IMG/VR virus record: IMGVR_UViG_3300013102_000059
Location: 1 to 28,675 of that record
Strand: one strand, 5' to 3'
Origin: a virus
Length of the DNA: 28,675 nt
Part shown: positions 25,853 through 25,979 of the stretch, in pieces
Numbering within the stretch: position 1 is the stretch's first letter
Layout: the number at the start of each line of letters is the position of its first letter
The notes under the pieces: generated by a model
The model's input: the letters and a program-made list of their open reading frames with translations, nothing else
Told to the model about the DNA's origin: nothing
The model's database searches: none
Translations under genes and position numbers: made by a program

Positions 25853-25979
25853 CAAGACACTATTCTCTTATAAAGTCCTGTCTTAACCGCTTGACTACTC
25901 ACCGAGATTCGGCAAGGTAGGATTCGAACCTACGCATAGGACTGCTCTTTTAAGGGTTTAAATAGCTGTTAGTGTCTTT
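25853..25979 (-). ncRNA. Y-like RNA 7 with circularly permuted tRNA module
   Basis: Terminal stem AAGACACUA/UAGUGUCUU (25978-25970 with 25862-25854), then G; ACAGC follows GACAC after UA. The interior (25943-25874) is a complete tRNA body in permuted order: anticodon-stem 3' half AGUCCU, T-arm GUAGG-UUCGAAU-CCUAC (25933-25917), acceptor 3' half CUUGCCG, a 5-base loop AAUCU, acceptor 5' half CGGUGAG (7 pairs), D-arm GUC-AAGCGGUUAA-GAC, anticodon-stem 5' half AGGACU. The Y stem thus replaces the anticodon loop and the acceptor end is sealed. Bacterial YrlA RNAs are known to carry a tRNA-like module of this kind. The 3' end is 7 bases from tRNA-Thr. Confidence 0.82.

What the first reader, a model, noticed from the sequence alone, without database searches (positions are those of the whole stretch)
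25853..25979. Complete circularly permuted tRNA body inside Y-like RNA 7
The interior reads anticodon-stem 3' half, T-arm, acceptor 3' half, a 5-base loop, acceptor 5' half, D-arm, anticodon-stem 5' half. All stems pair: 7-bp acceptor CGGUGAG/CUUGCCG, 3-bp D, 5-bp T, 6-bp anticodon AGGACU/AGUCCU. The Y stem replaces the anticodon loop. This is a tRNA mimic of the YrlA kind and more complete than I would expect, since the anticodon stem is also kept. Cutting at the sealed acceptor loop by RNase P and a 3' enzyme could make a nicked tRNA-like molecule.
Basis: seen in the sequence. Interest (0 to 1): 0.88.

Follow-up and report, generated by a model that had tools for sequence, protein, structure and literature searches.

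The report
Phage Y RNA holding permuted tRNA
This bacterial virus makes a small RNA whose inside is a whole transfer-RNA body in rearranged order, held in a stem that probably binds the virus's own version of the Ro60 protein; this kind of tRNA imitation was known from bacteria, but here it comes in many versions, some showing anticodons, across many viruses.

Summary
On the minus strand at 25978-25853 a Y-type stem encloses a circularly permuted tRNA body with a sealed 7-bp acceptor. RNAfold finds this fold unaided (z -3.1). Orthologues at the same place, between tRNA-Leu and tRNA-Thr, keep the acceptor paired through double-sided changes.

It is one of seven such stems in this phage, beside a DUF2828 gene whose predicted fold is Ro60 (Z 21.4). 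Searches gave 129 non-redundant relatives with the AGACAC stem. In 67 permuted bodies the acceptor pairs at 6-7 of 7 positions in 63, against 3.4% of mismatched combinations and 4 of 174 tandem-tRNA junctions. The Levitt pair 15-48 covaries (58 of 65).

Permuted tRNA mimicry by bacterial YrlA is already known, and Rfam's YrlA consensus already has a helix at the anticodon-stem position, so "more complete than expected" fails. RNase P maturation is not supported. New here: a motif shared by diverse phages ([7-bp stem]NN-ACAGC...), cargo opened at different places, Y RNAs showing only an anticodon arm, and bacterial loci joining DUF2828, such RNAs and RtcB ligase. What the modules bind is unproven.

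The parts
25853..25978 (-). The Y-like RNA of the finding: 7-bp stem, ACAGC box, permuted tRNA body
25965..25978 (-). 5' side of the Y stem AAGACAC, UA, ACAGC box
   Evidence: Same box in 7 exact copies in the window; general motif beside Ro-like genes
25939..25943 (-). Anticodon-stem 3' half AGUCC (U44 adds a sixth pair with A26)
25917..25933 (-). T arm, 5-bp stem and loop UUCGAAU
25910..25916 (-). Acceptor 3' half CUUGCCG
25905..25909 (-). Loop AAUCU sealing the acceptor
25898..25904 (-). Acceptor 5' half CGGUGAG
25880..25895 (-). D arm, 3-bp stem with GG in the loop; U8-A9 precede it at 25897-25896
25874..25878 (-). Anticodon-stem 5' half GGACU
25853..25860 (-). 3' side of the Y stem GUGUCUU and the conserved G
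   Evidence: Pairing of the outermost base 116 of 129, G 128 of 129
26285..26402 (-). Y-like RNA with T arm, weakly paired acceptor (5 of 7) and D arm
25632..25719 (-). Y-like RNA with a T arm (one mismatch) and possible anticodon arm; no D arm found
24703..24764 (-). Y-like RNA holding only a tRNA-Lys(UUU)-like anticodon arm
22146..22196 (-). Short Y-like RNA
21760..21824 (-). Short Y-like RNA just after a perfect promoter
21412..21473 (-). Short Y-like RNA just upstream of the Ro-like gene
19850..21322 (-). DUF2828/DUF7788 protein with a predicted Ro60 fold; presumed partner of the Y RNAs
26114..26142 (-). Promoter-like TTGACA-17-TATAAT upstream of tRNA-Leu and the finding's RNA

Best explanation
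A YrlA-type, tRNA-mimicking Y-like RNA, one of seven made by a Tsamsa/FADO-like Bacillus phage, that belongs with the phage's own Ro60-fold protein (DUF2828). Shown from sequence: the terminal stem with its ACAGC box, the permuted tRNA body, its covariation including the tertiary 15-48 pair, and linkage to the Ro-fold gene. Inferred: the stem and ACAGC box bind the Ro-like protein, and the closed tRNA body is a recognition module that cannot be charged or decode. As in YrlA it would tether or distract proteins that recognise tRNA bodies (tRNA-modifying enzymes, PNPase, or nucleases that cut tRNAs), so that the RNP serves tRNA quality control or repair during infection. I put about 0.35 on a decoy or competitor role as the main one; the confidence below is for the structural class and the Ro partnership.
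For: Unaided fold; double-sided changes in orthologues at the same place; acceptor pairing 6-7 of 7 in 63 of 67 against tandem-junction control; Levitt pair 58 of 65, U8 63 of 65, A14 64 of 65; strict motif on the Ro-like gene's strand in 46 of 80 protein-picked loci against 1 of 80 on the other strand; Ro60 fold; same order as the YrlA consensus; DUF2828 followed by RtcB within 1 kb in 9 of 21 bacterial loci with enough downstream sequence.
Against: No expression or binding data for this phage. RF02553 scores the RNA at only 18.3 bits against a cutoff of 69. Pfam does not call the protein TROVE, and a sequence profile against the PDB did not find Ro60. 34 of 80 protein-picked loci show no strict motif. 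Other cargo (normal-order tRNA, anticodon arm only) shows that a permuted body is not needed for the system.
Confidence: 0.75

Rival explanations
1. A circularly permuted tRNA gene or two-piece tRNA: the sealed acceptor loop is cut by RNase P and a 3' nuclease, with or without ligation of the ends, giving a functional or nicked tRNA.
For: All tRNA helices and tertiary positions are kept; 7 of 65 sealed loops hold NCCA; 9 relatives keep complete anticodon arms with U33 and A37; junctions at varied places also occur in algal permuted tRNA genes (PMC3978253, passages).
Against: CCA is rare compared with ordinary tRNAs of the same loci (7 of 65 against 280 of 576) and G1 less common (23 of 65 against 307 of 576). 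In the anticodon-loop class the loop halves are not conserved, and in 3 of 10 (L008, L093, L094) no junction point would give U33. Other members of the same family have no acceptor at all.
Confidence: 0.1
2. The phage set is mainly an anti-defence device: tRNA-shaped and anticodon-arm Y RNAs are decoys for host nucleases that cut tRNAs, held on a Ro platform.
For: Anticodon arms with U33 and a purine at 37 in short Y RNAs: 12 of 72 against 1.0 expected, and 6 of 27 against 0.4; recurrent UUU, GUA and GUU loops; published suggestion that the YrlA module may inhibit an anticodon nuclease (PMC7790460, passages).
Against: No nuclease or host data; the finding's own RNA lacks an anticodon loop; the anticodon-arm filter itself requires U33 and R37; most Y RNAs show no tRNA part at all (94 of 116 without a T arm).
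Confidence: 0.3
3. Artefact: remains of neighbouring tRNA genes that look permuted because a 3' half precedes a 5' half, enclosed by a chance repeat.
For: Y RNAs lie within tRNA clusters, and tandem tRNAs naturally give a 3'-half/5'-half order; some cargo looks incomplete (window 25719).
Against: Double-sided compensatory changes in orthologues, near-universal acceptor pairing, Levitt pairing that 0 of 5,000 shuffles reached, and almost no pairing at real tandem junctions.
Confidence: 0.03

Closest known systems
Bacterial Y RNA YrlA (Rfam RF02553; PDB 6CU1)
   Same: Terminal stem, then helix at the anticodon-stem place, T arm, acceptor, D arm in the same permuted order; aligns to tRNA as a circular permutation in three dimensions (PMC11472068, passages); encoded beside a Ro-type gene.
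   Different: Different stem and an ACAGC box; far below the Rfam cutoff (18.3 of 69 bits; best relatives 37.7-39.2); partner is DUF2828; related RNAs are opened at other places or carry only an anticodon arm.
Circularly permuted tRNA genes of algae and archaea
   Same: 3' half before 5' half, short sequence between the acceptor halves, varied junctions, U8 and R15:Y48 kept (PMC3978253, passages).
   Different: Those become real tRNAs through a ligated circle; here the ends form a Y stem and nothing points to maturation.
rsr-yrlBA-rtcBA RNA repair operon (Salmonella)
   Same: Ro-type protein, Y RNA and RtcB together (PMC7790460, passages), as in the bacterial DUF2828-RtcB loci.
   Different: DUF2828 instead of a TROVE protein; the phage loci examined lack RtcB nearby.
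Phage Ro60/TROVE proteins (jumbo phages, Thermus phage phiLo, mycobacteriophages)
   Same: Ro fold; phiLo Ro60 is a structural match; mycobacteriophage homologues are annotated Ro-like.
   Different: I found no paper describing a common Y motif or cargo like this in the searches listed.

Membership tests
YrlA / bacterial Y RNA | Permuted tRNA-like module: T arm, acceptor, D arm | tested here: met
YrlA / bacterial Y RNA | Long terminal stem formed by the two ends | tested here: met
YrlA / bacterial Y RNA | Rfam RF02553 gathering score of 69 bits | tested here: not met
   18.3 bits; no family member reached it in the loci scanned. So YrlA-like, not filed as RF02553
YrlA / bacterial Y RNA | Gene beside a Ro-type protein gene | tested here: met
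   DUF2828 with Ro60 fold
YrlA / bacterial Y RNA | Binding to the Ro protein and PNPase; D and pseudouridine from Dus and TruB | not testable with these tools
   Needs biochemistry
Circularly permuted tRNA gene | 3' half before 5' half with paired acceptor and tRNA tertiary positions | tested here: met
Circularly permuted tRNA gene | A usable anticodon loop after joining the ends | tested here: inconclusive
   The window RNA could give U33 for some junctions; 3 of 10 relatives of its class cannot
Circularly permuted tRNA gene | Processing to mature ends by splicing, RNase P and tRNase Z | not testable with these tools
   Indirect signs are against it (CCA and G1 counts)
Ro60/TROVE protein | Ring of helical repeats plus vWA domain | tested here: met
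   Ten best Foldseek hits are Ro60/TROVE; Z 21.4 over 417 residues
Ro60/TROVE protein | Metal-site motif DxSxS of the vWA domain | tested here: met
   D301, S303 and S305 invariant in two alignments; the motif's name is recalled
Ro60/TROVE protein | Match to the Pfam TROVE model | tested here: not met
   Only DUF2828, DUF7788 and VWA_2 at E up to 0.01: a Ro-fold relative, not a Pfam TROVE member

The most novel reading that the evidence does not exclude
Phages keep a set of interchangeable tRNA mimics on a Ro60 platform. A common clip ([7-bp stem]NN-ACAGC ... G) grips tRNA bodies opened at the anticodon loop, the D/anticodon junction, the variable region or the acceptor end, or only an anticodon arm of a chosen tRNA. 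Together they would act as decoys or placeholders in a contest over tRNA cleavage and repair; the bacterial form is a DUF2828 - Y RNA - RtcB repair operon, and the RNA opened at the anticodon loop imitates a tRNA that was cut there.
Probability: 0.3. Interest if true: 0.85.

Novelty: new variant of a known kind. Interest (0 to 1): 0.63.

Why it matters
Why Ro proteins and Y RNAs exist in bacteria is still open. A shared, easily searched motif ties tRNA-shaped RNAs to a Ro-fold protein present in 677 of 50,697 phage records and, in some bacteria, to RtcB ligase. Phages of Bacillus subtilis and Mycobacterium smegmatis are among the carriers, so binding, processing and anti-defence roles become directly testable. 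The different opening points also offer a natural series for asking which part of a tRNA each mimic presents.

Tried and rejected
Rejected: tandem-tRNA artefact (0 of 174 junctions with 7/7 pairs); chance inverted repeat; a plain YrlA member by Rfam; the idea that CKA15_059-061 in Listeria phage CKA15 are these Y RNAs (the region is ROOL-like, 90.1 bits against a cutoff of 99.1, E 8e-19). A sequence profile of DUF2828 against the PDB did not find Ro60; only the fold comparison did. MAFFT did not register the acceptor halves, so covariation was counted per structural position in Python and the count of structure pairs was not used.

Limits. Some scan hits are chance matches in coding sequence; they were left in the denominators (44 of 129 have no T arm, short Y RNAs included). 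Arm calls need a TTCRA T loop and a GG D loop, so atypical arms are missed and those positions are conserved by construction; D-arm choice favoured acceptor pairing, and the cross-pair control kept the same choice. The acceptor count uses 67 RNAs; later counts use 65 (two with fewer than 5 pairs dropped). In one search, 4 of the 12 RNAs called permuted had 3 or fewer acceptor pairs. Control words: most gave 1-6 hits per strand; CAGCA (51, overlaps the motif), TCAGC (15) and TTAGC (13, opposite strand) gave more. In one search most loci had been chosen for the AGACAC stem. Flanks of 10 kb or less limit the RtcB statement. Splitting the permuted class by anticodon architecture is rough: 13 RNAs can pair both ways and 19 show no canonical anticodon stem. 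The ARAGORN tRNA set used for the CCA and G1 comparison contains some poor calls (157 of 576 with 5 or fewer acceptor pairs by my end rule).

Literature: Chen 2014, Wang 2018, Sim and Wolin 2018 and Sim 2020 are not held, so whether they already describe parts of this is unknown. Searches that turned up no paper on these phage RNAs; these cover only open PMC papers. Of papers cited I saw passages only.

Full report
WHAT IS THERE. The window is a 28,675-base virus record related to Bacillus phages vB_BcoS-136, FADO, 2S-4 and PJN02. On the minus strand a PhoH-type gene and one further ORF are followed by a tRNA cluster (19 tRNAs by ARAGORN), with Y-like RNAs between the tRNAs, and then a DUF2828 gene. 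The finding lies at 25978-25853. Its parts are: 5' stem AAGACAC, UA, ACAGC, a short hairpin, AGUCC, UAUGC, T arm GUAGG-UUCGAAU-CCUAC, CUUGCCG, AAUCU, CGGUGAG, UA, D arm GUC...GAC, A, GGACU, and GUGUCUU-G. RNAfold returns the same helices with no constraint, -34.4 kcal/mol, z -3.11, 1 of 200 shuffles as good.

SEVEN COPIES. AGACACNNACAGC occurs exactly seven times, all on the minus strand (control pattern: once), at 26402, 25977, 25719, 24764, 22196, 21824 and 21473, each followed 45 to 117 nt later by GUGUCU. In all seven the base before the stem pairs with the base after it, and a G follows. Two copies start just after perfect TTGACA-17-TATAAT promoters; the finding's RNA lies behind a third such promoter and tRNA-Leu.

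ORTHOLOGUES. FADO, 2S-4 and PJN02 carry the same RNA between tRNA-Leu(UAG) and tRNA-Thr(UGU), as the window does; BcoS-136 has one elsewhere in its cluster. Acceptors are CGGUGAG/CUUGCCG (window), CCGAUGG/CUGUCGG (FADO) and UACGGUG/CAUCGUA (BcoS-136); anticodon stems GGACU/AGUCC and GGAGU/ACUCC. All pairs hold despite changes on both sides.

A LARGE FAMILY. With the window and phage records there were 184 stems with partners, 129 after removing those over 90% alike. The base before the stem pairs with the base after it in 116 of 129, and G follows in 128 of 129 (the partner with that ending was preferred when several existed). 85 of 129 have a T arm: 67 permuted and 13 in normal order, the rest with no D arm found. 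Within the 67, acceptor pairs number 7 in 44, 6 in 19, 5 in 2, 4 in 1 and 2 in 1; of 4,422 mismatched combinations 0.4% reach 7 and 3.1% reach 6. Real tRNA neighbours in the same loci, which have the same 3'-half/5'-half order, reach 7 in 0 of 174 and 6 in 4 of 174. Every acceptor position shows several pair types and exceeds all 500 shuffles. Among 65: U8 63, A14 64, A21 59, and R15-Y48 as G-C or A-U in 58, where 5,000 shuffles averaged 32 and never passed 46. So the tertiary core is under selection as well.

WHERE THE tRNA IS OPENED. Of 65 permuted bodies, 10 are opened in the anticodon loop, as here; 13 can form the anticodon stem either that way or locally; 14 have a local hairpin 5' of the T arm (in L096 a full anticodon arm, that is, opened between D and anticodon arms); 9 have a complete anticodon arm at the 3' end, opened before the variable region, with loops CUGUAAA (3), CUUAAAA (2), CUGAUAA, CUGAAAA, CUUGAAA and CUGUUAA; 19 show no canonical anticodon stem. 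All 5 anticodon pairs at canonical spacing occur in 23 of 65 against 2.4% of cross pairs. The 13 normal-order cases replace or extend the acceptor by the Y stem; 3 of them pair at all 7 acceptor positions. Some short Y RNAs hold only an anticodon arm: 12 of 72 in the protein-picked set against 1.0 expected, and 6 of 27 in the AGACAC set against 0.4. The window's copy at 24764 imitates tRNA-Lys(UUU).

THE GENERAL MOTIF AND ITS PROTEIN. Around annotated phage DUF2828 genes the stem sequence differs but the layout stays: 7-bp stem, two bases, ACAGC, then the stem's partner and a following G. Examples are Listeria LP-039, Staphylococcus SEP9, Enterococcus VRE9_4, Mycobacterium LeBron, Escherichia dune and Campylobacter F336; Aeromonas PX29 showed none. 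In 80 viral loci picked by protein only, 46 carry at least one strict motif on the gene's strand and 1 on the other; 120 hits against 1, with 61 different stems among 116 non-redundant RNAs. Of these 116, 22 have a T arm; 12 were called permuted, 8 with at least 6 acceptor pairs. tRNA bodies are therefore a minority cargo. Three actinophage-type loci (L205, L209, L217) show a short, permuted-tRNA, short trio just after the Ro-like gene; in L205 the middle RNA has GCAGC. The protein, modelled from 22 sequences (pLDDT 80.7), matches Ro60: the ten best Foldseek hits are Ro60/TROVE, and Z is 21.4 over 417 residues to the Ro autoantigen 1yvr, against 9.5 for the best other entry. A Thermus phage phiLo Ro60 structure is among the matches.

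BACTERIAL RELATIVES. The same pattern in genome contigs gave 92 stretches and 93 matches; 29 have the paired flank, the G and a T arm. These are 21 normal order, 7 permuted (all with 6 or 7 acceptor pairs) and 1 other. DUF2828 lies in 35 of 92 loci. RtcB is within 1 kb downstream on the same strand in 9 of the 21 such loci that have at least 800 nt downstream; in Butyrivibrio sp. XPD2006 (L292) the order is Y RNA, DUF2828, RtcB (PF01139, E 2.4e-55). No phage locus had RtcB beside a Ro-like gene (its 'phage records' group includes seven pieces of the window itself). I cannot say which of these bacterial loci are prophages.

HOW IT MOST LIKELY WORKS. YrlA binds the Ro60-type protein Rsr by its basal stem, tethers PNPase and is modified as a tRNA mimic (PMC8394870, passages). 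By analogy the ACAGC stem holds the phage Ro-like protein and the tRNA body is the module that meets tRNA-recognising partners. The acceptor is sealed and the anticodon loop is gone, so it should neither be charged nor decode. Maturation to a tRNA is disfavoured: NCCA in 7 of 65 sealed loops against CCA in 280 of 576 ordinary tRNAs of the same loci, and G1 in 23 of 65 against 307 of 576. The neighbouring RtcB in bacteria and the published link of rsr-yrlBA-rtcBA to tRNA breakage (PMC7790460, passages) point to tRNA repair or quality control; those authors already suggest that the YrlA module may inhibit an anticodon nuclease. Binding, expression and partner identity are inferences.

WHAT IS KNOWN AND WHAT IS NEW. 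That a bacterial Y RNA is a circularly permuted tRNA mimic is known (6CU1; PMC11472068, passages), and the Rfam YrlA consensus has the same order with a 4-bp helix at the anticodon-stem place. Phage Ro and Y RNAs have been mentioned. By Rfam's cutoff this RNA is not YrlA. I found no paper describing the ACAGC motif, the varied opening points, anticodon-arm Y RNAs or the DUF2828-RtcB pairing in the searches listed under Tried and rejected, but the main Y RNA papers could not be read. Hence: new variant of a known kind.

Noticed in passing
L220 2696-3247 minus (Listeria phage CKA15, OR088597.1): CKA15_059-061, whose abundant transcripts were suggested in print to be siRNAs or Y RNAs (PMC12282133, passages), match ROOL RNA (90.1 bits, cutoff 99.1, E 8e-19). 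The ACAGC-motif Y RNAs lie instead between CKA15_055 and _056.
   Followed up: partly
window 23242-23311 minus: Skipping-rope RNA (RF02924) at 36.0 bits, just under its cutoff of 36.7, in a tRNA-poor, structured stretch of the cluster.
   Followed up: no
L018 3098-4706 minus; L069 1323-1919 plus: Viral contigs with these Y RNAs also carry ROOL RNA, and L018 a tmRNA as well.
   Followed up: no
window 26609-26581, 26142-26114, 24808-24780, 21873-21845 minus: Four perfect TTGACA-17-TATAAT promoters with TG before the -10 box drive the tRNA/Y RNA cluster.
   Followed up: no
L292 2224-5118 minus (Butyrivibrio sp. XPD2006): Y RNA, DUF2828 and RtcB in one row on a bacterial contig, a possible repair operon with a Ro-fold protein other than Pfam TROVE.
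   Followed up: partly
window 24703-24764 minus; L022, L076, L101, L180: tRNA-Lys(UUU)-like anticodon arms recur in short Y RNAs of different phages with different stems.
   Followed up: partly
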